Assembly: GCF_000825685.1 (NCBI RefSeq)
Contig: NZ_CCXM01000001.1
Location: 829,828-893,827, forward strand
Direction of reading: 5' to 3'
Origin: Rickettsia hoogstraalii
Lineage (GTDB): Bacteria; Pseudomonadota; Alphaproteobacteria; Rickettsiales; Rickettsiaceae
DNA: 64,000 nucleotides
The translations under genes were made by a program, and so were the position numbers. The notes beneath the pieces are model-generated. The model had not been told where the DNA came from. It ran no database searches and was given only the letters and a program-made list of their open reading frames with translations. Below are positions 2,021 to 62,162 of the stretch, piece after piece (the stretch's first letter is position 1; every line of letters starts with the position of its first letter).

Positions 2021-2194
2021 GATGTCATTCCTGCGAAAGCAGGAATCTAGAAAAAGGTATACATACAGCAAATTTTTGAAATTAAAAGCTCGATTTATCT
2101 CGCTTTATGCTGGATTCCCGCCTACGCGGGAAGGCATTGTTGTGTGGACCGGTAAACCTACTGTGTTACCCCGTGGTCAAGCTACGGGATGACA
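2021..2194. repeat. Palindromic repeat, GCGGGAAT type, with a GTGGTCAAGC arm attached
   Basis: The left arm is GTCATTCCTGCGAAAGCAGG and the right arm ends CTGGATTCCCGCCTACGCGG. It is followed by the spacer TTGTTGTGTGGACCGG and a solitary arm containing CCCCGTGGTCAAGCTACGGG. It fills the gap between the decayed gene and the Fe-S carrier gene. Confidence 0.8.
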
Positions 2195-2196
2195 CG

Positions 2197-2529
2197 TTAC
2201 ACCGAAAAAGAATTACCGCAGCCGCATTTTGCTTTAGCTTGCGGATTACTAACATTGAAATATGAACTGCCGAGTTCCTCTATAAAATCTAAAGTACAAT
2301 CTAGCATAAATTTTTGAGAGATAGGATCAATAATAATTGTAGCATTATGTTTAGTAATGACATAATCATCTTGCTCTATATTATCTTTTGAGACTAGTTC
2401 GTAATTATACATAAGTCCTGAACAACCGCCGCTATCAACAGAAACTCGCAGTACTAAATTCTTATCTTTTTCTAGCTCTATTAACTCGCAAACTCGTTGA
2501 AAAGCTCTATCCGTAATTGTTATCGTCAC
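2197..2529 (-). CDS. erpA: A-type iron-sulfur cluster carrier (IscA/ErpA/HesB family)
   Basis: The 110-residue protein delivers Fe-S clusters to apo-enzymes. The three cluster-ligand cysteines of the family are visible: GGCSG in the middle and CGCG near the C-terminus (AKCGCGNSF). I chose the GTG at 2527-2529 (VTITITDRAF) because it gives the normal family length and has an AAGG about 9 bases upstream. The longer open frame to 2649 runs into a palindromic repeat and is unlikely to be translated. The gene diverges from dgt. Whether it is ErpA or a second IscA cannot be settled from sequence alone, so the symbol is tentative. Confidence 0.85.
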   Translation of the reverse strand: MTITITDRAFQRVCELIELEKDKNLVLRVSVDSGGCSGLMYNYELVSKDNIEQDDYVITKHNATIIIDPISQKFMLDCTLDFIEELGSSYFNVSNPQAKAKCGCGNSFSV

Positions 2530-2588
2530 CAAAATTACCTTGTAAAAGTCTTGTAAATTATATAGTATAATGAATATTTTTTCAAGAT

Positions 2589-2734
2589 GGCGTTGTGTTG
2601 AGGCTACCAAATCGTCATTGCGAGGAGAGGCAAAGCCTCGACGTGGCAATCTCAGGAATTTTATACTGTTTTCTAGATTGCCACGCTCTCTACGTTCGCT
2701 CGCAATGACGATTTGGTAGCCTCAACACAACGCC
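2589..2734. repeat. Long palindromic repeat with 36-bp perfect inverted ends
   Basis: The outer 36 bp at 2589-2624 (starting GGCGTTGTGTTGAGGC) are perfectly complementary to 2699-2734. The arms include CGTCATTGCGAG and an internal hairpin, GAGGCAAAGCCTC. The element occupies the divergent promoter region of the Fe-S carrier gene and dgt. Confidence 0.95.
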
Positions 2735-2754
2735 TTTCAAAATAAAGGATAACG

Positions 2755-5658: not shown

Positions 5659-5754
5659 CGTCATTGCGAGCAGCCGTAGGCTGCGTGGCAATCTCATGAA
5701 GTAATACTCCTGAGATTGCTTCGTCAAAACTGACAGTTTTCCCTCGCAATGACG
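5659..5754. repeat. Palindromic repeat, CATTGCGAG type
   Basis: The left arm has CGTCATTGCGAG with hairpin CAGCCGTAGGCTG. The right arm, read in reverse, has CGTCATTGCGAG with hairpin AAAACTGTCAGTTTT and GACGAAGCAATC. It lies between argS and the SPOR gene. Confidence 0.9.
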
Positions 5755-6457: not shown

Positions 6458-6612
6458 GTCATACCGTGGCTTGTCCACGGTATCCAGTTAAAAATACTAA
6501 AATTATTAGTATTTTTATTGTTTTTATGGACCTCGTGGGTTTTACTGGTCCACGCAACAATGCTACGCGGGAATAACAAACGATCCATGCAACAACAACT
6601 GCTTGTAATGAC
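6458..6612. repeat. Palindromic repeat remnant, CCGTGGCTTG type
   Basis: The left arm, GTCATACCGTGGCTTGTCCA, continues with CGGTATCCAG and forms the hairpin ACCGTGG/CCACGGT. It is followed by TTTTACTGGTCCACGCAACAA and a degraded right side. It fills the gap before parC. Confidence 0.8.
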
Positions 6613-14690: not shown

Positions 14691-14732
14691 TCACTTTTCT
14701 AATCCATAAAAAAATCCGTTTGCGAGAAAGAC

Positions 14733-14900
14733 GTTGTTGCGTGGATCGATTTTCCGTCATTGTGAGAAGAATTACGTAGTAATTCGACGAAGCAATCCAG
14801 TTAAAAATTCTGTAAATCAGAATTTTTTTATTATTTTTTCTGGATTGCCACGTCGCTTCGCTCCTCGCAATGACAATTAAGATATCTACGCAACAATGCC
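14733..14900. repeat. Palindromic repeat, CATTGCGAG type
   Basis: The left arm is CGTCATTGTGAG with hairpin GAATTACGTAGTAATTC and GACGAAGCAATCCAG. The right arm ends GGATTGCCACGTCGCTTCGC followed by TCCTCGCAATGAC. GTTGTTGCGTGGATCG and ACGCAACAATGCC flank it on the outside. It separates queF from the TrcR-like gene. Confidence 0.9.
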
Positions 14901-17219: not shown

Positions 17220-17340
17220 CGTCATTGCGAGAAGAATTACGTAGTAATTTGACGAAGCAATCCAGTTAAAAATTCTGATTTACAGAATTTTTCTAATTAT
17301 TTAACTGGATTGCCACGTCGCTTCGCTCCTCGCAATGACG
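17220..17340. repeat. Palindromic repeat, CATTGCGAG type
   Basis: The left arm carries the hairpin GAATTACGTAGTAATTT. The right arm carries GAGCGAAGC (in reverse), as in the element at 14733. It lies between the divergently read ends of pntB and the OmpW-like gene, on the pntB upstream side. Confidence 0.9.
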
Positions 17341-20786: not shown

Positions 20787-20987
20787 AGATTCTAAGTGAT
20801 TATTTGCAGAAAGAATTTGGGATGTATGCTAATGAAGCTACAGTAGCATCTTTCTGATGAAGTACATATAGGTGGAGCGAATGAAAAGCTAGAATAAGAG
20901 CTTTTTTGTAAATAGTAAACGAATTTCTAAAATTCTTCTTGATTTAATAGCAAATATGTGGCAAAAAGAGTTTGAAATAAAATTCTA
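20787..20987. other. Gap with possible gene remnant
   Basis: A short frame near 20795-20850 reads LSDYLQKEFGMYANEATVASF before stops, which suggests the remains of a small gene. No family could be assigned. The AT-rich palindrome at 20988 follows. Confidence 0.35.
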
Positions 20988-21143
20988 GACTATATGAAAG
21001 AAAATTAAATTAATCTATTTTTGCTCTTTTTAGCTACAAATTATCAAATTTTTTGAAATAGGCACAGTTATTACCGCAAAAATCTTATTAGTTTGTTTAA
21101 AATATCTAAAAATATAAATAATTTAATTTTCTTTCATATAGTC
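20988..21143. repeat. AT-rich palindromic element, copy 2
   Basis: The ends GACTATATGAAAGAAAATTA (left, then AATT) and their exact complement at 21120-21143 form a 24-bp perfect inverted repeat. The interior shares the core of the element at 12273-12434. The element stops two bases before the tRNA-Thr gene, so any tRNA promoter must lie inside it. Confidence 0.85.
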
Positions 21144-21145
21144 TT

Positions 21146-21702: not shown

Positions 21703-21760
21703 TTACAGCTTTATCTTAGTAATATCTCTCATACTTGTCATTGTCTATCTTTGTTGACAT

Positions 21761-22059
21761 TGTTGTGTAGACCGGTAAAACCTACTGTGTCACCTAGTTC
21801 GCTTGACCACGGGGTCCATAAATACAATAAAAAATACTAATAATTTTAGTATTTTTAACTAGATCCTGTGGTCAAGCCACGGGATGACAGAGGTAAAACT
21901 GATCCACGCAACAACACCTTGCGAGGAGCAAAGCGACGTGGCAATCCAAAAAAATAATTAAAAAAATTCTGATTTACAGAATTTTTTACTGGATTGCTTC
22001 GTTGAAACTTACAATTTCTTCTCGCAATGACGAAAAAATCGGGCCATGCAACAAAGCCG
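21761..22059. repeat. Two adjacent palindromic repeats (CCGTGGTCAAGC and CATTGCGAG types)
   Basis: The first runs from TTGTGTAGACCGGTAAAACC through GCTTGACCACGGGGTCC to GATCCTGTGGTCAAGCCACG and GGATGACA. It joins a second element, starting near 21911 with GCGAGGAGCAAAGCGACG, with a right arm ending TTCTCGCAATGACG. The outer CCATGCAACAAAGCC ends it. This fills the gap between secG and the next gene. Confidence 0.85.
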
Positions 22060-28275: not shown

Positions 28276-28320
28276 TCAAACCTCGATCAGTTATTATTTT
28301 TTTAAATATAAACGAGGCGG

Positions 28321-28349
28321 ATTATATAATGTTTATTAATTTATGTAAA
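28321..28349 (-). promoter_or_regulatory. Predicted sca2 promoter
   Basis: On the minus strand TTTACA (28344-28349) and TATAAT (28321-28326) are separated by 17 bp, which is a good sigma-70 match. The sca2 start is about 40 bases downstream of the expected transcription start and has GAGG ahead of it. Confidence 0.6.
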
Positions 28350-28447
28350 TTATTAATTACTAATTTTTGTTAACTAATAGATTTTTTAACCAAAATGTGC
28401 TTAATACATCACATACTAATGGCATCTCAATTTTCGGTAAATAAAAT

Positions 28448-29827: not shown

Positions 29828-29881
29828 AAGCTTGTAAATTATGCAATATACGTATATAGTTTGTAGGCTTATTGTAGAACA

Positions 29882-29970
29882 TCATTGCGAGGAAATTATG
29901 TAATAATTGACGAAGCAGTCTCAGGATATTTGACGAGATTGCCACGCAGCCTACGGCTGCTCGCAATGAC
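29882..29970. repeat. Palindromic repeat, CATTGCGAG type
   Basis: The left arm has hairpin AAATTATGTAATAATT followed by GACGAAGCAGTCTCAG. The right arm has CAGCCGTAGGCTG in reverse. It is between cysS and rpsB. Confidence 0.9.
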
Positions 29971-30032: not shown

Positions 30033-30119
30033 TGTCATTCTAGTTCCTTGATCACGGCATCCAGTAAATATATGATAATAAGTTGTTTTTGGATCCCGTG
30101 GTCAAGCCACGGGATGACA
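30033..30119. repeat. Palindromic repeat, CCGTGGTCAAGC type
   Basis: The right arm, GGATCCCGTGGTCAAGCCAC with GGGATGAC, is intact. The left arm (GTCATTCTAGTTCCTTGATC) is degraded. It is 54 bases upstream of rpsB, so it may lie in the leader. Confidence 0.85.
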
Positions 30120-30172
30120 AATATACACAATATCTTACGGAGGTATAAACTAACAATTAGGAGAATTTAAAA

Positions 30173-31090: not shown

Positions 31091-31203
31091 GATGTCATCC
31101 CCGCGTAGGCGGGGATCCAAATATAGAAGCTACATAATTTGATAGAATAAAAGATAAAAATTTTCATCTGTTTTACTGGATTCCCGCTTTCGCGGGAATG
31201 ACA
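31091..31203. repeat. Palindromic repeat, CCCGCG type
   Basis: The left arm is GTCATCCCCGCGTAGGCGGG with GATCC. The right arm is GATTCCCGCTTTCGCGGGAA with TGACAT. The two arms differ in stem sequence but both pair internally. It interrupts the rpsB-tsf gap. Confidence 0.9.
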
Positions 31204-35349: not shown

Positions 35350-35386
35350 GGTTTTTTTGTTTGTTTAGGTGGTTTTTTAGCTTTTC

Positions 35387-35479
35387 CGTCATTGCGAGGA
35401 AATTACGAAGTAATTGACGAAGCAATCTCAGAATATTTGACGAGATTGCCACGCAGCCTACGGCTGCTCGCAATAACGA
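35387..35479. repeat. Palindromic repeat, CATTGCGAG type
   Basis: The left arm has hairpin AAATTACGAAGTAATT. The right arm has CAGCCGTAGGCTG in reverse and ends TCGCAATAACG, with one mutation in the outer end. It lies in the leader of the acyltransferase-waaA pair. Confidence 0.88.
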
Positions 35480-35517
35480 TTTGGTATCCACGTAAGCCTT
35501 AAGCAGGAATGACATAC

Positions 35518-36714: not shown

Positions 36715-36744
36715 AATTTTGAGTCCGTATTAATGAGGTAGTTT

Positions 36745-36845
36745 GATGTCATTCCTGCGAAAGCAGGAATTCAGAGTAAAGCGAGATAAATCGAGCTTTT
36801 AAAAAGCCTTAAAATACTAGATTCCCGCTTTCGTGGGAATGACAT
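36745..36845. repeat. Palindromic repeat, CCTGCG type
   Basis: The left arm is GTCATTCCTGCGAAAGCAGG. The right arm is GATTCCCGCTTTCGTGGGAA with TGACAT. It is upstream of aatA. Confidence 0.88.
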
Positions 36846-36955
36846 TAATAATAAGCAATAATATAGCAATTTTAATCGCAATAAAATTATTTTATTTAAA
36901 AATTTATCAAGATATGCTTTATTATAGTAAGTAATATTAATTTAGTAATTAAACT

Positions 36956-37960: not shown

Positions 37961-37964
37961 ATCA

Positions 37965-38720: not shown

Positions 38721-38740
38721 TTAAATTAACGAGGATTTAT

Positions 38741-39340: not shown

Positions 39341-39347
39341 AGTTGCT

Positions 39348-39441
39348 GTCATACCGTGGCTTGACCACGGTATCTAGGAAACAATAAAAATACTAATAAT
39401 ATTATTATTTTTAACTGGATTCCCGCTTTCGCGGGAATGAC
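39348..39441. repeat. Chimeric palindromic repeat
   Basis: The left arm is GTCATACCGTGGCTTGACCA with CGGTATCTAG (CCGTGG type). The right arm is CTGGATTCCCGCTTTCGCGG with GAATGAC (CCCGCG type). The element therefore joins two arm types that elsewhere usually occur in matched pairs. Confidence 0.88.
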
Positions 39442-39517
39442 CATCGAGATCTTTTAAAAAACTGTCCGGTACTATGGGTCAAGCCACAGGACTCAAGCAC
39501 TTTAAAACATTATCTCC

Positions 39518-40584: not shown

Positions 40585-41789
40585 GCTTGTGTACTCTAGA
40601 AATAAATCTATCTGCAATAAAAAATAATTATCTTTTATTACAAGATATTTGCAAAACCTCATTAGTTGGTGCTGCCGTTAAAGCTAACGGTTACGGTCTT
40701 GGAGCAGTGCAAATTTCTAAAGCTTTAATAGAAGAAAATTGTAGGCATTTTTTTGTGGCCTCAAGTGAAGAAGGAGTGAATTTACGCAAAGCTTTAGGGT
40801 TAGATGTTAATATTTTAGTTCTTAACGGCGTTTTTGAACATGATGCTTTAGAGCTTATAGAATATAATTTAACGCCTGTTCTAAATAACTTAAAACAAAT
40901 AGAGATTTGGCAAAAATTTAGTAATTTGAAAAACCAATTATTGCCTTGTTATTTACATTTCAATACGGGGATTAATCGCCTTGGATTAACTCATAATGAA
41001 ATAGAGCAGTTAATTAATAATCGTGATTTATTAAAAGGGCTAGATTTACAATATATTATAAGCCATCTAGCTATATCCGAGGAAATAGATAATCCTTATA
41101 ATCTAGAGCAATTAAACAGATTTAAAACTTATTTACAATATTTCCCAAACGTTAAAGCAAGTCTTGCTAATTCCGGCGGCATATTTTTAGGTCAGGATTA
41201 CCATTTTGATTTAGCAAGACCAGGGGCTGCTTTATACGGGCTTAATTCTTTAATAGACCTCTCGCATAACCTATCTTATAAAGAGGAATTTGAAGGAAAC
41301 ACGGAACGCAGCACCGCAGCGTACAAAAAAGTACGTGAGGATGCGAGTACCGGATTGACGTACAAATTACCTTTAGAAGGGGGTTATGCGAGAGGTCTAC
41401 AGAATCCTGTAACCTTAAAAGCCCCTATAATTCATTTACAGAATTTGACACTAGATAGCCATATCGGTTATAATATGACTTTTACAACTAAGCGTGATAG
41501 TGTTATTGCAACGTTACCGCTTGGTTATGCCGATGGGTTTAATCGTAATTTTAGCAATCAAGGCGAAGTATTTATTAATGGTCGCAGCGTTCCTATAGTA
41601 GGGCGAATATCGATGGATTTGATAAATATCGATGTTACCGATCTACCACCGCTTGATATTTTTCTAGGGCAGGAAGCGGAAATTATCGGAAATTATTGCA
41701 CGCCCGATAAAATAGCGAGTATTATAGGTACTATAGGGTATGAGGTATTGACTAGTCTCGGTAGTAGGTATAAAAGAATTTATAAGTAA
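40581..41789 (+). CDS. alr: Alanine racemase with an in-frame RPE1 insert
   Basis: Alr makes D-alanine for peptidoglycan using PLP. K34 ([11 protein letters not shown]) is the PLP lysine and Y297 (SHIGYNMTF) the second catalytic base. At 402 residues it is about 50 longer than usual because an RPE1 element is inserted in frame, encoding residues about 225-273 ([16 protein letters not shown] through GGYARG). The insert follows GLNSLI and precedes QNPVTLKAP, and both flanks match the uninterrupted family. The gene otherwise appears intact, so the element is presumably tolerated in a surface loop. Confidence 0.95.
41254..41399 (+). mobile_element. RPE1 rickettsial palindromic element inside alr
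   Basis: The 146-bp element has perfect 16-bp ends, TAGACCTCTCGCATAA and TTATGCGAGAGGTCTA, and is read in frame with alr. It matches the copy at 15611-15759. Where the stem bases differ from that copy (TCG versus TTG), the partner arm differs to match. Confidence 0.95.
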
Positions 41790-41815
41790 TCGTCATGAGC
41801 TAAGCAATTGAAAGC

Positions 41816-42062
41816 CTTGTTGCATGGATCGAAAAACCTACTCTATGTCATTCCCGCGTGGCATTGTTACGTGGACCTGTAAACGCTCTTTATGTCATTC
41901 CCGCGAAAGCGGGAATCCAGTAAAACCGACAAAAAACTTGTTTTTTTAGGTTTATTTTTTAAATAAATAACTCCCATATCGATATTTGAAGTTATTTTTC
42001 TGGATCCCCGCCTACGCGGGGATGACATTGAGTAAGTTTTACCGATCCACGCAGCAATGCCT
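41816..42062. repeat. Composite palindromic repeat, CCCGCG type
   Basis: The core at 41892-42028 has arms GTCATTCCCGCGAAAGCGGG with AATCCAG, and CTGGATCCCCGCCTACGCGG with GGATGACAT. It is flanked by GTTGCATGGATCG on the left and CGATCCACGCAGCAATGCC on the right. It fills the alr-mlaE gap and contains the false upstream start of mlaE. Confidence 0.88.
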
Positions 42063-42110
42063 GTTCATGACGATTTAGATAATAATTACAAAACAAAAAA
42101 ATATACACAA

Positions 42111-42890
42111 ATGTTATTAAATATAGCTAATTCGGTCGGTAAACGTACTATAAAGTTTGCACAAAGTGTAGGTAGTTTTTCTCTATTTAGCTTTGCTGCC
42201 GTTAGCAGTATAATAAGACCGCCTTTATATTTGAGTTTAATCATCAGACAATTATTATTTATCGGGTTTCACTCGCTTCCGGTTGTTGCGATGACGACTT
42301 TTTTCTCAGGTGCGGTACTCGCATTACAGAGCTATACAGGCTTTTCTCGTTTCTCGGTTGAAAGTTCCATTGCAACGGTAGTAGTATTATCGCTGACTAG
42401 AGAGCTTGGACCTGTCTTAGCCGGACTAATGGTAGCGGGAAGAGTCGGGGCATCAATTGCCGCCGAAATAGCTACGATGAGAGTAACGGAGCAGGTAGAT
42501 GCTTTATATACTTTATCTACCGATCCTATTAAATATTTAGTTTTTCCAAGAGTAATAGCAGCTATTATTACAATGCCTTGTCTTGTTTTAATCGGTGATA
42601 TAATTGGTGTTATGGGCGGTTATTTGGTTGGTGTGTATAAGCTTGATTTTAATAGTGCAGCTTATTTAACCAGTACTTTTCAGTATTTAGAACCGATTGA
42701 CGTAATTTCCGGTCTTGTTAAAGCGGGAGTTTTTGGGTTTATTATTTCTATAATAAGTTGCTATAGCGGCTATTATTCAGGTAAAGGGGCTAAGGGAGTG
42801 GGAAGAGCTACTACCTCGGCAGTAGTAAATTCTTCTATCCTTATCTTAATCAGTAATTATTTAATAACCGAATTATTTTTTAAAGTATAA
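42111..42890 (+). CDS. mlaE: MlaE-family ABC transporter permease
   Basis: MlaE is the inner-membrane permease of the phospholipid transporter. The 259-residue protein (MLLNIANSVGKRTIKF start) has about five to six membrane segments and the family signature TRELGPVLAGLMVAGRVGAS with IAAEIATMRVTEQVDAL. I prefer the ATG at 42111. The ATG at 42057 lies in repeat sequence and would add 18 residues not expected for this family. mlaF starts two bases after the stop. MlaA and MlaC are about 3 kb upstream, and no mlaD or mlaB is in the window. Confidence 0.93.
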   Translation: MLLNIANSVGKRTIKFAQSVGSFSLFSFAAVSSIIRPPLYLSLIIRQLLFIGFHSLPVVAMTTFFSGAVLALQSYTGFSRFSVESSIATVVVLSLTRELGPVLAGLMVAGRVGASIAAEIATMRVTEQVDALYTLSTDPIKYLVFPRVIAAIITMPCLVLIGDIIGVMGGYLVGVYKLDFNSAAYLTSTFQYLEPIDVISGLVKAGVFGFIISIISCYSGYYSGKGAKGVGRATTSAVVNSSILILISNYLITELFFKV

Positions 42891-42892
42891 AT

Positions 42893-43651
42893 ATGAGTAC
42901 AAAGGAAGAATTTAAAATTAAAATTCGGTCATTATATAAATCATTTGCTAATCATAAGGTGTTAGACGGAATAGATTTGGATGTAAAAAAGGGCAGTTCA
43001 TTAGTTATTTTAGGCGGTTCCGGTAGTGGCAAATCGGTTCTAATTAAAAATATAGTAGGACTGATTAAACCTGATAAAGGTAAAATTTATATTGATAATG
43101 TAGAAATCCAAGATATCTCAAGTAAACAAAAATTTGAGATTATGGACGGTATAGGCTTTTTATTTCAAAGCGGAGCATTATTTGACTCCTTAAATATACG
43201 TGATAATATTACTTTCGAGACTAAAAAATTATCTAAGAAAGAAAAAAACGACCTTGCCGGTGCAAAGCTGAATTCCGTTGGCTTATCTCCTAGAATACTT
43301 GATCTTTACCCTTCCGAATTATCGGGAGGAATGCAAAAAAGAGTAGCACTTGCTAGGGCTATTTGTAGTACACCGTCGATTTTATTTCTTGATGAACCGA
43401 CCACAGGGCTTGATCCTATAATGGCAAATGTTATCAACGAATTAATTATAAAAATCCAAGAAGAGTTAGGGGCAACTACGATTACTATAACTCATGATAT
43501 GATTAGTGCCGAAAAAATAGCTAAAGAAGTAGCTATGATTTATCAAGGAAAAATTAAATGGTACGGTAGTAAAGATGAAATGCGTAATAGTGATAATCCT
43601 TATTTAAAACAATTTATAAATGGATTAACTACCGGTCCTATAGAGGTATAA
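42893..43651 (+). CDS. mlaF: MlaF-family ABC transporter ATPase
   Basis: The 252-residue ATPase powers the MlaE permease. Walker A is [10 protein letters not shown], the signature motif is [15 protein letters not shown], Walker B is [14 protein letters not shown] and the switch histidine is in TITHDM. The sequence is normal in length and closely linked to mlaE. The next small membrane protein follows by one base. Confidence 0.95.
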
Positions 43652-43652
43652 A

Positions 43653-43901
43653 ATGTTTAAGAACTTATTATGTATAATAATATTTCTAGGTATAAACCTA
43701 AATGTTTATGCTATAAACTCTAGCTCTTATACGACAGATGATATAATAAAAATAGTAATTATTCTTGGAATAGTTATTTTAATTTTTAGTCCTGCAAAAT
43801 TCCGTATAATCGTTATCGGTACTATGTTAGGTTTGGCTTGTGCCTATTTCACATATAAATACATCGTACCTATCTTTATTTCTTCACTAAACGGACCGTA
43901 A
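43653..43901 (+). CDS. Small membrane protein with pilin-like topology
   Basis: The 82-residue protein has a signal-like N-terminus ([16 protein letters not shown]), then two hydrophobic segments separated by SPAKFR and a short C-terminus. It begins one base after mlaF and is presumably in that operon. The family is not recognised. The layout resembles a VirB2-type pilin precursor, but no residue motif confirms this. The operon position argues instead for an Mla-linked role. Confidence 0.65.
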
Positions 43902-43959
43902 ATGATTGCCAATATCTCTTGTTCACTTTAATAATACCTAAAAGTTAATTAAATAACCC

Positions 43960-43988
43960 TTGATTTAATTAAAAGTTGTAATTATACT
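43960..43988 (+). promoter_or_regulatory. Strong predicted promoter
   Basis: TTGATT at 43960-43965 and TATACT at 43983-43988 are 17 bp apart, one of the best sigma-70 matches in the window. The downstream 83-residue gene has AGGAGGT at 44011-44017, seven bases before its ATG. Confidence 0.75.
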
Positions 43989-44023
43989 TATACCTGCCTA
44001 ATTAATATATAGGAGGTATAAAT

Positions 44024-44275
44024 ATGTCTGGGCATAAGAAAGATTTTTTAAAATCACCCTCAGCAATTACTGCTGCAAGAAGAGGGCCTGCGGTAGAAAA
44101 GGTAATACAAGCTGCTCCTGTAGTAGTACAGCATGTACAGAAATGCGAAGCGATGCAAGTTGCAAACGATCCGTATTATCAACATATGCCTAAAAACAAC
44201 GCTGCGGCAGCAACAATATATGCAGCAAAAATGGGCGGAGAAAATCACGATATAAGTGGTTGTGAAATCTCATAA
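44024..44275 (+). CDS. Hypothetical 83-residue protein with strong expression signals
   Basis: The gene has both a near-consensus promoter and a near-perfect Shine-Dalgarno sequence (AGGAGGT), a combination otherwise seen only for highly expressed genes. The product is soluble, slightly basic at the N-terminus (MSGHKKDFLKSPSAITAARR), with two cysteines, and alanine-rich near the end (NNAAAATIYAAKMGG). No domain is recognised. It stands alone, so it is a monocistronic unit. The strand is opposite to the next small membrane gene. Confidence 0.75.
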   Translation: MSGHKKDFLKSPSAITAARRGPAVEKVIQAAPVVVQHVQKCEAMQVANDPYYQHMPKNNAAAATIYAAKMGGENHDISGCEIS

Positions 44276-44302
44276 CTAGAGTTAAGCGGTAAGGAGTAAA
44301 TA

Positions 44303-44668
44303 TTACTCCTTATTATTATATTTAATTACTGGTTTAATTTTTATTTCAGAAATTAAATAAATAAACATGAGTATTATATAATATAACATAGCAAATATAA
44401 TAAATGTTATAAAAAAAGAAATAAAATAAATATATTTTGTATTAGAAAAAGTTTTAAAGAAGTTAAAGTTATAAAAAAGAATATTGCTTATAGTTAAGGT
44501 AATAAATGCAAAAATTTTTTGTTTAATAATCCATTTGTCAGTATTATTGTATAATAATAAATTTAATAATACGGCTAAAATTATTAAATTTATTATCATG
44601 AATGATTTTCCTCCACAAAATAGCGAAGTCCAATAAAATACATTAATTAAATTTTGTATTTTCCACAT
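44303..44668 (-). CDS. Small membrane protein, hypothetical
   Basis: The 121-residue frame encodes about three hydrophobic segments (residues about 23-40, 50-65 and 82-105) in a Phe-, Ile- and Tyr-rich sequence, and ends KYNNKE. The base composition is very AT-rich, as in many weakly constrained rickettsial genes. No family is recognised. The opposite-strand orientation and lack of a clear ribosome site leave some doubt that it is translated. Confidence 0.5.
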   Translation of the reverse strand: MWKIQNLINVFYWTSLFCGGKSFMIINLIILAVLLNLLLYNNTDKWIIKQKIFAFITLTISNILFYNFNFFKTFSNTKYIYFISFFITFIIFAMLYYIILMFIYLISEIKIKPVIKYNNKE

Positions 44669-44861
44669 AAAGCTTAGTACAAACTATTAGTTTAATCTAA
44701 ATAACAATATAATAATTAGATAAAGCTAAGCAAATATAAAGTATATTTAAATGTTGATAAATAAAAAACGGTACCGTAAATGATTAGCTCTTGACACTAG
44801 GGTAGGATTACTTTATATTTTTTATCTATTGTATATTTATAAGTTTTAAGGTATTTAGCTT

Positions 44862-45155
44862 ATGTCACGTAAGTGCGAACTCACAGGTGTGGGTGTTTTA
44901 TACGGCAATAACGTATCACATTCTCAACGTAAAACTAGAAGACGTTTCGAGCCTAATTTAAGGTCAGTTAAGTTTACAAGTGATATAACGACCGGAGAGT
45001 ATAGGTTATCGGTTAATGCTAGATGTATTAGTTCAGTGGAAAAAGCCGGCGGTTTTGATGCATATATTCTAAAAGCCGATGATAATGTTTTATCAAGTAA
45101 CGCTAGAGCTATTAAGAAAAAAATAATTCAGACTAAAACGGCAAAATCATTATGA
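44862..45155 (+). CDS. rpmB: 50S ribosomal protein L28
   Basis: The 97-residue protein has the L28 start (MSRKCELTGVGVLYGNNVSH) and RRRFEPNLRSVKF, the usual rRNA-binding segment. It overlaps rpmE by four bases, so L28 and L31 are made from one message in this organism. Confidence 0.97.
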   Translation: MSRKCELTGVGVLYGNNVSHSQRKTRRRFEPNLRSVKFTSDITTGEYRLSVNARCISSVEKAGGFDAYILKADDNVLSSNARAIKKKIIQTKTAKSL

Positions 45156-45388
45156 AAAGCGGTATACATCCAGAATATAAAAAGTTTTTGATTAAAGTAG
45201 GAAGCGATGTTTTTGAAACAATGTCTACTCATCCTACAGGTGAAATTTTAATGGATGTTGATTTTAGAAAGCATCCGGCATGGAATAAAGATTCCGGAAA
45301 CGTAGTAAATCAATCGAACAAAAGTGTTAGTGATTTCAATAAAAGATTCTCAGGTCTTTCTTTCGGTGGTAAGAAAGAAGCTAGTTAA
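45152..45388 (+). CDS. rpmE: 50S ribosomal protein L31
   Basis: The 78-residue L31 has IHPEYKKFLIKVGSDVF and STHPTGEILMDVDFRKHPAW, the family motifs. No CXXC zinc motif is seen, so it is the zinc-free (C-minus) form. It starts four bases inside the rpmB stop. Confidence 0.95.
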   Translation: MKSGIHPEYKKFLIKVGSDVFETMSTHPTGEILMDVDFRKHPAWNKDSGNVVNQSNKSVSDFNKRFSGLSFGGKKEAS

Positions 45389-45403
45389 GCTTTGTTTGTG
45401 GAT

Positions 45404-45515
45404 ACCCAAGTCGTCTGAGCTACGGAAATTGCATAGCAATTGTACGTCCGCAATCTCAGGAGTTTATTATTATTTCATGAGATTGCCACGCAGCCTACGG
45501 CTGTTCGCAATGACT
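45404..45515. repeat. Palindromic repeat, CATTGCGAG type, degraded left arm
   Basis: The left arm holds hairpin AATTGCATAGCAATT and CCGCAATCTCAG but has lost its CATTGCGAG end. The right arm is GAGATTGCCACGCAGCCTAC with GGCTGTTCGCAATGAC. Confidence 0.8.
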
Positions 45516-45609
45516 ACTCGGTATCTATGCAAGAATGACACTAGCAATATTCGCATAGTATTGGACTAAATCACAATATAACACAGATAAATCGTCAATT
45601 CTCAATTAT

Positions 45610-45686
<77 letters not shown>

Positions 45687-45729
45687 TATTTTTTTTAATG
45701 TCATTCTAACCCATTTATAGCGTTATTGT

Positions 45730-46010
45730 ATGGTTCATTTTATGTCATTGCGAGAAGGCATTGACTGCGTGGACCGGTTTTTTTGTCATTGCGAGGAAAT
45801 TTACAATGGTAAATTGACGAAGCAATCTCAGGAGTTTTTTATTATTTCATGAGATTGCCACGCAGTCTACGACTGCTCGCAATGACGACTCGGTATTCAC
45901 GTAGGCAAAGGCCTTCAATCGCTCGTAATGACGATTTGGTATCCATGCAACAACGCCGGACAAGCCACGGGATGACACAGAGGTGAAATTGATCCATGCA
46001 ACAAAACCTA
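45730..46010. repeat. Palindromic repeats, CATTGCGAG type and fragments
   Basis: The clear element is 45785-45887, with hairpin AAATTTACAATGGTAAATT on the left and CAGTCGTAGACTG (in reverse) on the right. Fragments before (GTCATTGCGAGAAGG) and after (GCAACAACGCCGGACAAGCC) extend the block to about 46010. No gene is seen in this gap. Confidence 0.85.
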
Positions 46011-46034
46011 CAAATTTATCAAATCTAAAAAACT

Positions 46035-46679
46035 ATGACTAATAATGAGAAAGCGATAAATAATAAAAAATTAACTGATAGTATAAAGCTTTTTCGTCAT
46101 CAAGCTAAATTTGTAGCTGGTGCTATGAATATAAATCAAATCCCCAATTTTTCATTACCGGAAATTGCTTTTGTCGGTAAGTCAAATGTCGGCAAGTCAA
46201 GCCTAATAAATACGATATGTAATAATAAAAATCTTGCTAAAGTTTCTAATACTCCTGGACGTACTAGGCAAATCAATTTTTTTAACCTTGCAGATAAACT
46301 TATTATAGTTGACCTTCCCGGTTATGGTTTTGCTAATGTTCCTATATCAGTCAAAGAACAGTGGGAAGTGTTAATTAGTTATTATTTACGAAATAGTTAT
46401 AATTTAAGGTTAGTTAACTTATTGATTGATTCAAGAAGAGGTATAAAAGAAAACGATAAGAAAGTAGCAGAGCTATTACTTGCAAATAAAAGAGAATTTC
46501 AAATTATTTTCACAAAATCCGATAAAGTTACGGATCGTAAAAACCTTAACGATGAAGCACAGAATTTTCTTGCAACTTTAAACTACTCATGTAATGTTAT
46601 GTATGTAAGTAGTAGGAGTAAAGAAGGTGCAAGAGAACTTAAAGCTAGTTTGGCAAAATGCATCAAACCTCAAAGGTAA
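46035..46679 (+). CDS. engB: Ribosome biogenesis GTPase EngB/YsxC
   Basis: EngB is a small GTPase needed for 50S subunit assembly. The 214-residue protein has G1 GKSNVGKSS at 48-56, a G2 threonine in [13 protein letters not shown]3 DLPGYGFA, and G4 TKSDK. The alphaproteobacterial order engB-argB is kept here, with the argB-like frame overlapping its end by 53 bases. Confidence 0.96.
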
Positions 46680-47475
46680 AGAGGTAGATAGTATTTCTTC
46701 ATTAAATAACATTGCTATAATTAAGAATATAATAAAGTGTAGTAGTGAGCTGAAGAATCAAGCAATAGTTCTAAAATTACCTGCTACTATTATTATTGAC
46801 AATAAATTATTTACGGCTTTTATTGAATCTGTTAGATTGCTTGAGATGTGCGGTGCTAAAATATATATAGTACATGATCATATTGATTTACGAAGTTCGT
46901 CTTTAATATCACAAATAGATGAAAATTTTAGTCAGAAAATTAGTAAAATAAGCGACTATAGTTCTCTAAATAATCCTATTATTATGGAAATTTTATCTAG
47001 TTACGTTAACAAGCTTATAGTAACAAAGTTAAGTAGTATAGGTTGTTATGCAGTTGGTATTTTAGGTAAGGATGCTAATTTACTGCAAGCAAAAAAGTCA
47101 AAATTATCTCACCGAAAAATTGTAAATCATGATGTTATAAATGTGATAGCACCATTTGCTAATGATGATCAGGAAAAAACGCATTTATTAAATGTTAACT
47201 TAACGGTAGCAACAATTGCTTCTGCATTAAGTGAGGAACATTTAATATTGCCATATGAGATATTACAGGTATCCGAGACATTTCCGTATAATATAAAAAT
47301 ACGAGATATTAACTTATTGAAATCAATGTTAGATGATAGTAATAATTTCATCGAAGAAGAATTAATTAAGATAGCAGTTAATGCACTTGAAAATAATAAC
47401 GGTTACGTACATTTTGTGAATAGTGAAGTACCGAATTCAATATTGTCAACTATGTTTGATATTAATATAAATTAA
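46627..47475 (+). CDS. ArgB-like (acetylglutamate kinase) family protein lacking glycine motifs
   Basis: The 282-residue frame starts with GTG and overlaps engB. It aligns with Arg[20 protein letters not shown] corresponds to the strand that normally reads VVIKYGGNAM, and [14 protein letters not shown] matches GLTGKDGNL. The glycine-rich motifs needed for ATP and acetylglutamate are lost: YGG is LPA and the HGGGP loop is HDHID. Rickettsiae do not make arginine, so the fold probably persists without kinase activity, perhaps in another role or as a decaying gene. It is followed by virB3 after 12 bases. Confidence 0.7.
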
Positions 47476-47487
47476 TAGAGGTTTTTT

Positions 47488-47775
47488 ATGGCAGGAGCAT
47501 TAGCATCCGATCTTTTATTTGTAGGGTTAACTAGACCGCCGATGATATTTGGAGTAAGTATTAAGTTTGCTGCATTAAATATGATAATGACGATGATAGT
47601 ATTTATTTGGAATAACGGCATTATGATTTTATTCATTGCAGCTGCTTTGCATTTGGTAGCTTATATTATATGTTTTAAAGAACCGAGATTCATAGAGCTA
47701 TATTTAAATAAAATGTCAAGAACTAGCCAATGTCCTAATAAATTTTACTACGGAGCAAATTCGTATAATATTTGA
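47488..47775 (+). CDS. virB3: Type IV secretion protein VirB3 (RvhB3)
   Basis: VirB3 is a small inner-membrane component of the secretion machine, usually paired with VirB4. The 95-residue protein has two hydrophobic segments and the diagnostic N-terminal stretch FVGLTRPPMIFGVS. ATG follows TAGAGGTTTTTT. Gene order engB-argB-like-virB3 places it as the first secretion gene of the operon. virB4 follows after a 298-base gap full of repeats. Confidence 0.93.
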   Translation: MAGALASDLLFVGLTRPPMIFGVSIKFAALNMIMTMIVFIWNNGIMILFIAAALHLVAYIICFKEPRFIELYLNKMSRTSQCPNKFYYGANSYNI

Positions 47776-47811
47776 GTTTTATGTCATTCTCGCGTGGATG
47801 CTAAACCTACT

Positions 47812-48040
47812 CGATGTCATCCTCGCGCAGGCGGGGATCCAGAAAAAAGGTATAAATACAGCAAATTTTTGAAATTAAAAGTTCGATTTATCTCGCTTTA
47901 TGCTGGATTCCCGCTTTCGCGGGAATGACATAAAGAGCATTTACCGGTCTACGCAACAAGTCCTTGCGAGCAGCCGTAGGCTGACAGTATAAAATTTCTG
48001 AGATTGCCGAGTCGAGGCTTCGCCTCTTCTCGCAATGACA
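47812..48040. repeat. Two palindromic repeats between virB3 and virB4
   Basis: The first (47812-47930) has arms GTCATCCTCGCGCAGGCGGG with GATCC and GCTGGATTCCCGCTTTCGCG with GGAATGAC. The second (about 47961-48040) is a CATTGCGAG-type element with GCGAGCAGCCGTAGGCTG and a right arm GAGGCTTCGCCTCTTCTCGC with AATGAC. Confidence 0.88.
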
Positions 48041-50509: not shown

Positions 50510-50630
50510 CGTCATTGCGAGCAGTCGTAGACTGCGTGGCAATCCAGAAAAAGTAATAAAAAAATTCTGTAAATTAGAATTTTTTACTGGATTGCTTCGT
50601 CAAAATTTTCAATTTTTCTTCGCAATGACG
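50510..50630. repeat. Palindromic repeat, CATTGCGAG type
   Basis: The left arm has CAGTCGTAGACTG, a compensatory variant of CAGCCGTAGGCTG. The right arm holds AAAATTTTCAATTTTT and TTCGCAATGACG. It separates virB4 from the first virB6-type gene. Confidence 0.9.
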
Positions 50631-58987: not shown

Positions 58988-59039
58988 ATGGTGAATCGAA
59001 AATCGCCATTGCGAGTGGGTATTAGTGTTGTTGCATTGC

Positions 59040-59310
59040 TAGTTTTATGTCATTCCCGCTTCCGTGGGGATGACATCGAGTGCATTTTTCAAGCCATGCA
59101 ACAATGCCTTTGGTTGCTGGGTTGTTGCATGGATACCCGAATCGTCATTGCGAGGAGCGAAGCGACGTGACAATCCAGAAAAATAATTAAAAAAATTCTG
59201 TAAATCAGAATTTTTTACTGGATTGCTTCGTCGAATTACTGCGTAATTCTTCTCGCAATGACGGGAAACCGAGCCATGCAACAACGCCTTTGGTCGCTCG
59301 CAATGACAAA
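59040..59310. repeat. Palindromic repeats between the third and fourth virB6-type genes
   Basis: The main element at 59143-59263 has arms CGTCATTGCGAGGAGCGAAG and AATTACTGCGTAATTCTTCT with CGCAATGACG. Outer ends GTTGTTGCATGG (59121) and CCATGCAACAAC (about 59274-59285) are complementary. A solitary CCCGCTTCCGTGGGGATGAC arm is at 59055-59075. No gene is in the gap. Confidence 0.88.
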
Positions 59311-59354
59311 AAATAAAAACCACGGTATGACGTGTTGGATAACAATTTAAAATT

Positions 59355-62024
59355 ATGAAAATTCTTAAGAGTTTAATTTTATTAGTTTTGTTTATGGCGA
59401 TGCCAGCTAAAGCTGATGATGCTTTTTCATGGATGTCAACCAGTTTTGGTGGGTTAAAAAGCTTATTCGGTTGTTTAGAAGTGCCTGAATTTACAAGTTT
59501 TAAAGAGGGTAATATAGGAATTAGTTTATCTACAGCCGGAACTTGGCAATCAACAGGTAATACTGTTGAGAAAGGTAAATTGTTAAAAATAAACTGGTCT
59601 ACTTCAGGTATTACTCCTGAACCTAGAAAATATCTAGTATTATATAGAATTGATCCAAGGTTTAGTACGCCGCAAGTTTTCATTAAAACTTATAAATATG
59701 CTGAATCAAAGTTTGAAGCTTTAGGATTTCCTCGTTTTGTTACGGACAATAACAATGCAACACCTGGGGCTATACCGCCTGATAAAGACCTTGATGCACT
59801 TTCATTTACTAAAATGTCTGATTCTGTTAAATATTTTAACTATTCTAACGGTAATTCGAGAATTGAAGTTAAGGCCGGCGATGTAGTAAATATTAGTTTG
59901 GTTGGTAAAGATAATTTTTTTAGCCCTAATACTCTAGATAATATTTTAACGCAGGAACTTGATAGTTCGATATTCGCTGCTTCTGCACTTTATACTCAAA
60001 GTAACCTTGGAAAATTTGATAATAGAATAATTTACTCATCTGCAAAGGAGGTATGTGATCTTATAGATGCTTCAAGAGATCCTGATAAACCAAGCGGGTG
60101 TAGCGGTACTGGCTCAGCTACAAAATATAAAAGTATAAATAGTAACGAAGCATTAGTCGGCAAACCTATGATAACGAGAGCGGTACAGAATTTCATGGGC
60201 TTAATTAATTCTTGTCCTGCTAATGCCGGTATAAATACTAGCCCTGCTTGCTATTACGATCAAGGTAGAGGGATGATAATTAAAGTAGGCGGGCAGGTTA
60301 TTAAGGAACGAGATCAGAGTTTTGTAAATTCAGACAGCACTCAAAGTAGCTTTATATATTATCAAGCCACTAGCGGCGGTACTATGGATTTTACTAGCGA
60401 TTGGCAAGTTAATAACATGTTTAGTAATTCAGTTTTAATGAGTGATTGGAGCCGAAATTTTTCAAATTATGCTAATTTTGTAGATTATATAAATAAGAAT
60501 GATTGGTCAGCTAATTTTTTATATTTCGGTCGTTATTCGATGATTGTTGAAATAGGTAATGGGGCAAATTCAATTAGTCCGGGTGATCAGCAAAATATAA
60601 GTTTAGAATATTTAATAACATCTGATGGTACGTTACCTGATCCATCTGTTCGTGGTACGCTGGTAGATTATAACTTTGCGGCTGATGCACCGCAAGATGG
60701 ATATTTATGGTTAAGGGTGGTAAATCCTAATAGTGATATACAAGGGGTGGTTAGTGTAAATTATGCTAATTATACCGGTACAACTTGGTTTTCTGATATA
60801 ATATATAATGGTGCTATTAAACCTATTACCGATCAGTTTAGAACTTTTAGTCAAAACTTTTATATTAAGTTAGTTAAAAATTCTGCAGTGCAGAATATAG
60901 CTAAAGCTGCATTAACCCTTTATGTTACTATATTTGGGCTAATGTTCGTTGCGGGAGCATTAAAATTAACTGCCGTAGAAGTAATAACACGTATATGCAA
61001 AATAGCTATAGTAGCTTTTTTAATTAGAGAAGAAAGTTGGAGCTTCTTTAATACATACTTCTTTAGTGCATTTACTGACGGTATTGATTTCTTTGTAACT
61101 AACGTAGTAGGTGCTACAAGCTCTAGATCTAATATTTTTGGTTTTATTGATCCTATATTTGATAAATATACTAACGGTAGGATTTGGGGATTACTATTTA
61201 TTGAATTATTACAAATACATAATGGTTTAGCATTTATCGCTATTATAACCATTTATTCACTTATTACTTATTTTAGAGCTATTTTAGAAGTCATAATAGG
61301 CTATGTTATTGCATTCATAGGGGTAACTGTTATGATTTCATTAGCACCGTTTTTCATAATATTAATGTTATTTGAAAAAACTAAAAGTTTATTTGATAAT
61401 TGGATATCGACATTGCTTAGCTATGTAGTGCAGCCGACAATATTATTGATTTTCTTTTTATTGATAGATCAGGTTTTATCTGAGCAGCTTTTAAAAGTAG
61501 TAGTTAGAGCCTGTTGGGATACTCTGATACCAATAAAAATAGGGCTTGATTTAACAAATCTTGGTATTCCGATTAATTTCTCTTTTACATTACCGTTCTT
61601 ACCAGGAATACCTTTCTATGTACCGGATGTACCGGAAATTAGTAGCTCGAATATTCTAACGAACAACGCTAATACTTTCTTAGTATTATTTACTACGGCT
61701 TTATTAGTTTATTCATATTGCTTGATGTCATATGGTTTAGTAACTTTTGTAAATATAGTAGTCGGAATGCTTACAAATGTTACACCGGCACGAATATCAG
61801 GAAATTATCAAGAACGCTCTGATCCTGTGGGAGCCGTTATGCAGGATATAGGTTCGGTAACAAAACCGATTAAAAAGGCTGCAATGGCTCCGGCTAGAGT
61901 TTTCAAAGATAAGATAATTGATCAAAATTATAAAGCTAGAAAACCGGAAGGAGGTGGTGAATTTACAAATAAATTCCTTGCCGAGCGTAATGATGTACCG
62001 AAGAAAGAGGAAGAGAGAAAGTAA
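59355..62024 (+). CDS. VirB6-family protein, fourth copy (RvhB6d)
   Basis: The 889-residue protein has a signal peptide (SLILLVLFMAMPAKA/DD), a large extracytoplasmic domain of about 500 residues and a VirB6 core with IAFIGVTVMISLAPFFIILM and FDNWISTLLSYVVQPTIL, then a short charged tail. Several core motifs (AALTLYVTIFGLMFVAGALK) match the other copies. ATG follows AACAATTTAAAATT. A palindromic repeat block separates it from the third copy. Confidence 0.93.
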   Translation: MKILKSLILLVLFMAMPAKADDAFSWMSTSFGGLKSLFGCLEVPEFTSFKEGNIGISLSTAGTWQSTGNTVEKGKLLKINWSTSGITPEPRKYLVLYRIDPRFSTPQVFIKTYKYAESKFEALGFPRFVTDNNNATPGAIPPDKDLDALSFTKMSDSVKYFNYSNGNSRIEVKAGDVVNISLVGKDNFFSPNTLDNILTQELDSSIFAASALYTQSNLGKFDNRIIYSSAKEVCDLIDASRDPDKPSGCSGTGSATKYKSINSNEALVGKPMITRAVQNFMGLINSCPANAGINTSPACYYDQGRGMIIKVGGQVIKERDQSFVNSDSTQSSFIYYQATSGGTMDFTSDWQVNNMFSNSVLMSDWSRNFSNYANFVDYINKNDWSANFLYFGRYSMIVEIGNGANSISPGDQQNISLEYLITSDGTLPDPSVRGTLVDYNFAADAPQDGYLWLRVVNPNSDIQGVVSVNYANYTGTTWFSDIIYNGAIKPITDQFRTFSQNFYIKLVKNSAVQNIAKAALTLYVTIFGLMFVAGALKLTAVEVITRICKIAIVAFLIREESWSFFNTYFFSAFTDGIDFFVTNVVGATSSRSNIFGFIDPIFDKYTNGRIWGLLFIELLQIHNGLAFIAIITIYSLITYFRAILEVIIGYVIAFIGVTVMISLAPFFIILMLFEKTKSLFDNWISTLLSYVVQPTILLIFFLLIDQVLSEQLLKVVVRACWDTLIPIKIGLDLTNLGIPINFSFTLPFLPGIPFYVPDVPEISSSNILTNNANTFLVLFTTALLVYSYCLMSYGLVTFVNIVVGMLTNVTPARISGNYQERSDPVGAVMQDIGSVTKPIKKAAMAPARVFKDKIIDQNYKARKPEGGGEFTNKFLAERNDVPKKEEERK

Positions 62025-62060
62025 CAAAATTATTTTAGTGTCATCCCACGACTTAAAAAT

Positions 62061-62162
62061 CGTCATTGCGAGCAGCCGTAGGATGGTACGGCAATCTCAT
62101 GAAATAATAACAAATTCCTGAGATTGCTTCGTCAAAACTTACAGTTTTTCCTCGCAATGACG
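62061..62162. repeat. Palindromic repeat, CATTGCGAG type
   Basis: The left arm is CGTCATTGCGAGCAGCCGTA with GGATGGTACGGCAATC, where one hairpin position is mispaired. The right arm has AAACTTACAGTTTTT and CCTCGCAATGACG. It sits between the fourth and fifth virB6-type genes. Confidence 0.9.

What the first reader, a model, noticed from the sequence alone, without database searches (positions are those of the whole stretch)
2021..62162. One modular superfamily of palindromic elements with covarying hairpin arms
The repeats usually seen as three separate kinds (CATTGCGAG, CCCGCG and CCGTGGTCAAGC) share one arm plan read outward to inward: GTCAT, a variable hairpin, then ATC(C/T)AG. Each element is two such arms facing each other. 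The hairpins differ between copies, but the two sides change together: CAGCCGTAGGCTG becomes CAGTCGTAGACTG (45785 and 50510 elements), TCCCGC/GCGGGA becomes TCCTGC/GCAGGA (2021, 36745), ACCGTGG/CCACGGT becomes CCCGTGG/CCACGGG (39348, 30033), and the long arm uses AAATTACGAAGTAATT, AAATTTACAATGGTAAATT or AAACTGTCAGTTTT. Paired changes in both sides imply selection for pairing, or copying of whole arms. This argues for function at the RNA or DNA-hairpin level rather than simple decay.
Basis: partly seen in the sequence, partly recalled or inferred. Interest (0 to 1): 0.8.

Follow-up and report, generated by a model that had tools for sequence, protein, structure and literature searches.

The report
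Rickettsia palindromes as self-nesting transposons
The three kinds of small palindromic repeats in this Rickettsia-like genome look like interchangeable insides of one family of tiny transposons, which share their ends with a full-size jumping gene found in a related genome and often land inside older copies of themselves.

Summary
In detail: all three repeat kinds share one arm, GTC-[AT stem AT]-C, usually two facing inward, and stem differences between copies are paired. The superfamily idea is largely in print (CGTC-tagged REPs, Di Nocera 2013; common origin of RPE-4/-6/-7, Matsutani 2013). What I did not find in print is the outer boundary. Arm dimers of all three kinds lie inside units with 18-bp terminal inverted repeats (GGCRTTGTTGCRTGGMTC) and 9-bp target duplications: 9 of 37 units in the own-genome sample and 20 of 97 in relative G020 match at 8 or 9 of 9 bases, 0 of 5000 permutations each. 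One unit sits in frame in the alanine racemase gene of relative G005, with empty sites in this window and G022. G020 carries a 1150-bp IS5-family element with the same ends. Units lie preferentially in older arms. Across species stems decay by one-sided changes at about the unselected rate, plus a minority of paired changes; one site keeps its flanking repeat in 7 genomes while its interior changes kind. The covariation reflects copying and exchange of arms; selection for pairing in each copy is not shown.

The parts
2589..2734 (.). Complete unit, kind A (CATTGCGAG) dimer, 36-bp perfect terminal inverted repeat, 9-bp flanking repeat tttcaagat/tttcaaaat (8 of 9)
   Evidence: same site in 6 relatives with interiors of other kinds in 3 of them
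2614..2651 (+). Arm, kind A
2676..2709 (-). Arm, kind A
2024..2047 (+). Arm, kind B (CCCGCG type, variant CCTGC/GCAGG)
5660..5753 (.). Kind A dimer (CAGCCGTAGGCTG arm and AAACTGTCAGTTT arm), no recognisable outer ends
6458..6484 (+). Arm, kind C (CCGTGG type); an end-like sequence stops at 6564
14730..14900 (.). 171-bp unit (both ends) with kind A dimer; flanking 9-mers match at 2 of 9 only
17221..17339 (.). Kind A dimer; the same site holds kind B or C arms in other genomes
21756..21918 (.). 163-bp unit with kind C dimer, abutting a kind A arm; flanking 9-mers 2 of 9
21992..22031 (-). Arm, kind A, with an end-like sequence at 22041-22058
29883..29970 (.). Kind A dimer without recognisable ends (left arm altered)
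30092..30118 (-). Arm, kind C, CCCGTGG/CCACGGG; facing arm at 30033 decayed
31094..31202 (.). Kind B dimer with different arms (GTAG loop and GAAA loop)
35388..35474 (.). Kind A dimer (right arm with one altered base)
36748..36843 (.). Kind B dimer
39348..39441 (.). Mixed dimer: kind C arm facing a kind B arm
40787..40795 (.). CAAAGCTTT in the alanine racemase gene (40581-41789): the empty site; in relative G005 a 171-bp unit sits here between CAAAGCTCT and CAAAGCACT
41860..42061 (.). Unit whose left end abuts the half arm GTCATTCCCGCGT (41847-41859); kind B dimer inside; flanking 9-mers 3 of 9
45744..45886 (.). Half arm GTCATTGCGAGAA + end-like sequence + complete kind A dimer (45785-45886)
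47816..47963 (.). Kind B dimer with right end at 47963 abutting a kind A arm; absent from G005
50511..50629 (.). Kind A dimer; the same site holds kind B or C arms in other genomes
59118..59288 (.). 171-bp unit, kind A dimer, flanking repeat TTTGGTTGC/TTTGGTCGC (8 of 9)
62062..62161 (.). Kind A dimer (short and long arm), no recognisable outer ends

Best explanation
The arms are the interior of non-autonomous transposons (MITEs) of one family. A complete unit is an 18-bp terminal inverted repeat, a linker, two CGTC-type hairpin arms facing each other across a spacer, a linker, and the second terminal repeat; 29 of 37 units in the own-genome sample are 150-179 bp long. An IS5-family, IS903-like DDE transposase cuts at the terminal repeats and inserts the unit with a 9-bp target duplication, preferentially in an arm of an older unit, so that copies nest. 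Shown: the shared ends, the 9-bp duplications, one insertion with empty sites in two other genomes, an IS5-family element with the same ends in a related genome, the preference for arms. Inferred: that this transposase moves the units; that nesting with later loss, and recombination between copies, swap interiors at fixed sites; and that most paired stem differences arose in source copies and spread by copying and conversion, not by repair of each copy under selection.
For: Ends and duplications: adjacent convergent ends give 37 units in the own-genome sample (window, L039-L048, and 20 small loci picked because an exact end lies there); flanking 9-mers match at 8 or 9 of 9 in 9 of 37 (permutation mean 0.90, 0 of 5000 reach it); G020 20 of 97 (mean 0.70, 0 of 5000); G009 3 of 11 (18 of 5000); G005 2 of 12 (177 of 5000); at the other lengths from 5 to 13 only 0-3 units reach 80%. 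All three kinds lie inside such units. Clean event: a 171-bp unit plus 9-bp duplication (180 bp, 60 codons) in frame in the alanine racemase gene of G005 (462 against 402 aa), one copy of the target in the window and in G022. Source element: two 99.9% identical 1150-bp copies in G020, 321-aa product hitting NF033579 transpos_IS5_2 at 1.6e-67, PF13737 and PF01609; ends GGCTTTGTTGCATGGCTC and GGCGTTGTTGCATGGCTG; one side of each copy abuts an arm. Fragments (60-85% identical) with such ends 63 and 132 bp from the reading frame in G013. IS903B: inverted repeat GGCTTTGTTGAATAAATC and a 9-bp repeat (PMC10569121, passages); 14 of 18 end bases agree with the G020 left end by my count. Target choice: GTCA(T/C) within 25 bp outside on at least one side of 29 of 37, 74 of 97, 7 of 11 and 8 of 12 units against 4-7% of random placements; rejoined targets form a stem of 6 or more pairs over the duplication in 13 of 34 against 3.7%. 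Changing interior at one site: 2589-2734 in 7 genomes. In-place stem changes.
Against: Most units lack a duplication at the 8-of-9 level (28 of 37, 77 of 97). Neither intact G020 transposase copy has matching 9-mers at its two sides (1 of 9 each); an 887-bp inverted duplication beside them shows rearrangement. The own genome has no match to the transposase, PF01609 or PF13737. G017 has 173 exact ends but no transposase match. Only 13 of 32 window arms have an end-like sequence outside (random 3.2%), so some dimers may have moved or decayed otherwise. An odd-centre symmetry test around the duplication found no excess; only the hairpin test with other loop sizes did. On stems: 11 paired in-place changes exceed the about 0.7 expected, and unpaired arm positions change faster than paired ones (84 of 1144 = 0.073 against 0.032 per site in G009/G010), which could be read as constraint on pairing beyond the ascertainment effect.
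Confidence: 0.82

Rival explanations
1. One reading: the arms are functional RNA or DNA hairpins in each copy and compensatory substitutions keep them paired.
For: Strong covariation across copies; 11 two-sided changes that keep Watson-Crick pairs at orthologous sites against about 0.7 expected; unpaired arm positions change faster than paired ones.
Against: One-sided changes in stems accumulate at about the rate expected without selection (67 against about 65 summed over six comparisons; my sum); interiors of other kinds replace each other at fixed sites; no Rfam match to the arms; kind A counts range from 6 to 536 per genome.
Confidence: 0.08
2. REPIN-type spread: the arms are moved as single-stranded hairpins by a Y1/IS200-like (RAYT) transposase.
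For: CGTC-tagged hairpins in head-to-head dimers resemble REPINs; Y1 genes exist in 10 of 23 genus genomes.
Against: Y1_Tnp is absent from the five genomes richest in kind A arms (G000 536, G005 512, G012 343, G022 337, G020 320) and abundant in poorer ones (G011 121 arms and 89 Y1 matches, G019 100 arms and 121); 9-bp duplications and 18-bp inverted ends are not a Y1 signature (established knowledge, recalled).
Confidence: 0.04
3. The paired stem changes come from hairpin-templated correction (template switching inside the quasi-palindrome) at each site, not from copying between sites.
For: Paired changes occur at orthologous sites, including one hairpin one base shorter on each side in G007 than in G009 at the site of window 59000; 4 of the 11 two-sided Watson-Crick changes leave loop and length as they were.
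Against: 7 of the 11 also change the loop or length, and 5 of these turn one hairpin into another that is seen elsewhere in these genomes, which suggests a donor copy.
Confidence: 0.1
4. The terminal repeat belongs to a separate small element that happens to sit beside arm dimers; arms and ends are two unrelated repeat families.
For: 19 of 32 window arms lack an end; 2 of 37, 11 of 97, 3 of 11 and 2 of 12 units show no inner arm head by loose motifs.
Against: 35 of 37 and 86 of 97 units hold inner arm heads; unit lengths cluster, 25 of 37 at 160-179 bp in the own-genome sample; in the alanine racemase event ends and dimer arrived as one piece.
Confidence: 0.08

Closest known systems
CGTC-tagged REPs, families CGTC-1 and CGTC-4 (Di Nocera et al. 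2013, PMC3733652; passages, two sections and the first part of the Discussion; figures not held)
   Same: Tag CGTC or TGTC, AT as first stem pairs, 8-9 bp stem with loop 4-5, CCA-like tail, head-to-head dimers; R. conorii CGTC-1 = RPE-6 and CGTC-4 = RPE-4. By stem and loop length I equate kind B with CGTC-1 and kind C with CGTC-4.
   Different: [quoted passage not shown] kind A, with its bulged stem, does not fit the 8-9 bp stems described.
Rickettsia palindromic elements RPE-4, -6, -7 (Ogata et al. 2000, recalled only; Matsutani et al. 2013, PMC3767692, passages and one section)
   Same: Same elements as far as can be told (kind A = RPE-7 is my inference); shared ATGAC and a common origin proposed; different kinds at one site in different species tabulated; in-frame insertions in genes.
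   Different: No terminal repeat, target duplication or transposase in what I read; a 2007 review lists the RPE target duplication as '?' (PMC2229807, passages).
IS903B and the IS5 family (PMC10569121, passages)
   Same: 18-bp end similar (14 of 18), 9-bp target repeat, IS5-family transposase.
   Different: The G020 protein is 35-36% identical to the best plasmid matches listed; here the abundant products are MITEs with hairpin dimers inside.
IS elements that target REPs, such as IS1397 and IS621 (PMC1525189, passages)
   Same: Insertion into palindromic repeats; that paper reports REP-targeting in five IS families, IS5 among them.
   Different: Here the target repeats are parts of the same element family, so the family nests in itself; that paper found no IS in its R. 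conorii genome.

Membership tests
MITE mobilised by an IS5-family (IS903-like) transposase | Terminal inverted repeats | tested here: met
MITE mobilised by an IS5-family (IS903-like) transposase | Fixed-length target duplication, 9 bp | tested here: met
   9 of 37 and 20 of 97 units; the rest without it
MITE mobilised by an IS5-family (IS903-like) transposase | Insertion against an empty site with one target copy | tested here: met
   one clean event
MITE mobilised by an IS5-family (IS903-like) transposase | Ends shared with an autonomous element of the family | tested here: met
   intact in G020, fragments in G013; not in the own genome
MITE mobilised by an IS5-family (IS903-like) transposase | 9-bp duplication at the autonomous copies themselves | tested here: inconclusive
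   1 of 9 at both intact copies, flanks rearranged
MITE mobilised by an IS5-family (IS903-like) transposase | Transposition of the unit by the enzyme | not testable with these tools
   needs an experiment
CGTC-tagged REP superfamily | YGTC tag, AT-initial stem of 8-9 bp, loop 4-5, CCA tail, head-to-head dimers | tested here: met
   kinds B and C; kind A has the tag and AT start but a 5-bp outer stem, a bulge and an apical hairpin
REPIN (RAYT-dependent) | Y1 (HUH) transposase in the genomes rich in the repeat | tested here: not met
Known structured RNA | Match to an Rfam family at gathering score | tested here: not met
   only two tRNAs in the window

The most novel reading that the evidence does not exclude
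A self-homing MITE family: the hairpin arms carried inside each unit are the preferred landing sites for further units, which keeps most insertions out of genes, builds nested composites, and lets recombination through shared ends and arms exchange whole interiors at fixed chromosomal sites. The 'three RPE families' would then be exchangeable cassettes of one transposon, and CGTC-tagged REPs elsewhere in Alphaproteobacteria may have spread with IS5-family elements too.
Probability: 0.45. Interest if true: 0.85.

Novelty: new variant of a known kind. Interest (0 to 1): 0.74.

Why it matters
[quoted passage not shown] Defining the unit, its 9-bp duplication and a candidate transposase makes the spread of these elements directly testable, suggests why one site holds different kinds in different species, and warns that hairpin covariation among repeats need not mean a selected RNA structure.

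Tried and rejected
RAYT/IS200 mobilisation: Y1 genes do not track arm number. 8 Y1 loci and 30 PF01609 loci (of 139 PF01609 matches) scanned for the end sequence with up to 6 mismatches of 18: three loose convergent pairs (L082, L093, L103), judged chance; a generic terminal-repeat scan of the same loci turned up, among others, a G005 element with ends GGCTTTGTTCGGAAGG that I set aside. Of 33 long convergent end pairs in 11 genomes, 17 stretches were read for ORFs: no transposase that I recognised. Genome-contig scan with the transposase: 63 pattern matches, none confirmed. First own-genome pattern used a wrong spacer and is not used. Terminator-like scan of 28000-47999: 15 sites against 10.0 expected (sd 3.4), one of them in an arm (36821-36840); a general terminator role gets no support from it. 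Odd-centre symmetry around the duplications: 4.12 against 3.84 pairs of 14, no excess. A first count of 100 end pairs included overlapping pairs and is replaced. A first arm-likeness score for end flanks (120 of 126 and 120 of 325 ends, loose ends included) gave only 27 and 19 of 120 against 3 and 1 of 150 controls; one search looks at units only and at the GTCA(T/C) motif. Synteny of the own genome with G005 broke about 70 kb from the window start, so the orthologue test there rests on few arms.

In the orthologue test arms under 80% identity were dropped before counting: 7, 2, 4, 0, 7 and 7 in the six comparisons. The comparisons are not independent: G009, G000 and G005 each occur in two.
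Full report
What was checked. The window lies at C1:829828-893827 of an unnamed 1,484,812-base genome. The arm plan is real: 35 hits in the window against 4 in the reversed window and 0-7 in 20 Markov sequences; 3 of the 35 are long and spurious, leaving 32 arms. The genome holds 536 arms of the CATTGCGAG kind, none for the reversed pattern.

Arm anatomy. Kind A (CATTGCGAG): GTC-[ATTGC]-GAG-{apical hairpin}-(CGTG or GACGAA)-[GCAAT]-C. Kind B (CCCGCG): GTC-[ATTCCCGC]-GAAA-[GCGGGAAT]-CCAG. Kind C (CCGTGG): GTC-[ATACCGTGG]-CTTGA-[CCACGGTAT]-CCAG. In the own-genome sample kind A dimers pair one short with one long arm in 40 of 47 (23.5 expected from random pairing) and 0 of 47 have identical apical hairpins; facing kind B and C dimers have identical arms in 1 of 10 and 1 of 8. 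In G020, 27 of 32 kind A dimers are short-short, so this is a habit of some lineages, not a rule.

Covariation between copies. Arms were collected by anchors only. In the 40-nt class (32 copies) pair 15-25 reads A-T 17, T-A 13, C-G 2 and never one-sided; pair 17-23 is Watson-Crick in 31 of 32 with 19 two-sided changes. In kind B pair 8-17 is C-G 18, T-A 11, T-G 1 of 30; in kind C pair 5-23 is C-G 12, A-T 8, other 2 of 22. Other pairs hardly vary. Distinct sequences are fewer than copies (22 of 36, 15 of 32, 8 of 15, 16 of 30, 16 of 22 in the five classes), as sub-families would give (all).

Evolution in place. Six comparisons of orthologous arms (72, 48, 14, 11, 8 and 6 arms used) give 67 one-sided and 13 two-sided changes, 11 of the latter Watson-Crick, with about 0.7 such expected by chance. 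One-sided changes per stem site are 0.029 (G009/G010) and 0.025 (G007/G009), close to half the flank rates of 0.045 and 0.053; half is expected because stems were defined in one genome. Summed over the six comparisons, 67 are seen and about 65 expected on that basis; single comparisons vary (3 against about 6 in G000/G005, 0 against about 3 in G022/G005). So loss of pairing is not visibly opposed, while paired changes do occur. Against this reading, unpaired arm positions change faster than stems or flanks (0.066-0.115). Of the 11 paired changes 7 also change the loop or length, and 5 of these turn one hairpin into another seen elsewhere in these genomes. At the site of window 47775 the interior is inverted between G009 and G010/G007 (my reading).

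The outer boundary. Comparing syntenic stretches showed insertions longer than the arm dimer, ending in GGC.TTGTTGC. This end occurs in convergent pairs around arm dimers of all three kinds. Flanking direct repeats exist at exactly 9 bp: 9 of 37 units in the own-genome sample, 20 of 97 in G020, 3 of 11 in G009, 2 of 12 in G005 at 8 or more matches, permutation reach 0, 0, 18 and 177 of 5000; other lengths from 5 to 13 give 0-3. The own-genome sample and part of the G020 stretches were chosen where ends had been listed. Some duplicated targets are not arms, for example TATCTTTTG and AAGGTTCAG in G020, so the repeat is not an artefact of arm symmetry.

A clean event. In G005 a 171-bp unit lies between CAAAGCTCT and CAAAGCACT inside the gene whose window counterpart (40581-41789) matches alanine racemase; the window and G022 have the empty site. 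Unit plus duplication is 180 bp and the G005 frame stays open at 462 aa against 402. Unit lengths in general show no bias to frame-keeping.

The likely enzyme. G020, which has the most exact ends of 23 genomes (232; G017 173, G013 64, own genome 24), holds two 1150-bp elements, 99.9% identical, with these ends and a 321-aa protein matching NF033579 (IS5 family), PF13737 and PF01609. G013 shows 11 fragments 60-85% identical, at least 7 of them at a contig end, and where I looked the same ends lie beside them. The own genome has none. A related match in the phage collection carries the annotation IS903.B. IS903B's published inverted repeat and 9-bp repeat fit.

Target choice and nesting. GTCA(T/C) lies within 25 bp outside on at least one side of 29 of 37, 74 of 97, 7 of 11 and 8 of 12 units, against 4-7% of random placements. 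Rejoined targets with at least 8 of 9 matches form a hairpin of 6 or more pairs over the duplication in 13 of 34 against 3.7%; in 5 of these the loop centre coincides with the centre of the duplication, in 8 it is offset by 1.5 to 4.5 bases. This would explain 'half arm + end' composites such as 41847-41877 and 45744.

Exchange at a fixed site. At 2589-2734 the flanking 9-mers tttcaagNN and ttt(c/t)aaaat are shared by 7 genomes (6-8 of 9 matches) and end-like borders by all but G008, whose right end is not recognisable; the interior is kind A in G000, G009, G010 and G007, kind C in G021, and a single decayed kind-B-like arm in G004 and G008. Sites 17215 and 50508 likewise hold different kinds. 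Matsutani 2013 tabulated such replacements in genes.

Prior art and novelty. The tag, stems, dimers and common origin are in print, and so is REP-targeting by IS elements, the IS5 family included. I found no report of the terminal repeat, the 9-bp duplication or an IS5-family partner for these elements in the held library (searches; sequence searches 12, of which 30 of 150 papers were listed, and 53). Ogata 2002 and the R. felis genome paper are not held and Ogata 2000 was not looked up, so print outside the library is not excluded. A 2007 review marks the RPE target duplication '?'.

Limits. Most units lack a duplication; both intact transposase copies lack one; 19 of 32 window arms have no recognisable end; the window's own genome has no such transposase. 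Whether pairing is selected during multiplication remains open.

Noticed in passing
L126 (G020 about 275612-277241): A 1630-bp stretch between two convergent ends with a 491-aa ORF between a kind A arm and a kind-A-like arm, flanking 9-mers 7 of 9 alike: a captured gene or two neighbouring units.
   Followed up: partly
window 41254-41399: A different palindromic insert (TAGACCTCTCGCATAACC ends) inside the same alanine racemase gene, also in G005, absent from G022.
   Followed up: no
window 20987-21144: A 158-bp insert with 26-bp perfect inverted ends (AGACTATATG...), absent from G022.
   Followed up: no
window about 39823-40060: A tandem duplication of about 190 bp in the own genome, single copy in G005 and G022.
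   Followed up: no
34-nt kind A arms of the own-genome sample: 17 and 16 of 36 copies carry G-A then A-G in place of two Watson-Crick pairs, flanked by Watson-Crick pairs: looks like tandem sheared G.A pairs of DNA mini-hairpins (motif recalled; counts).
   Followed up: no
L174 (G016:C26, contig end): A weak transposase fragment (36% identity, E 2.3e-4) with a GGCATTGTTGCGTGGAT end 90 bp before it that abuts a kind C arm head.
   Followed up: no
G019 and G011: 121 (search-limited) and 89 Y1 (IS200-like) transposase matches per genome.
   Followed up: no
site of window 47775, G009 against G010/G007: The interior dimer lies inverted in place between close relatives.
   Followed up: partly
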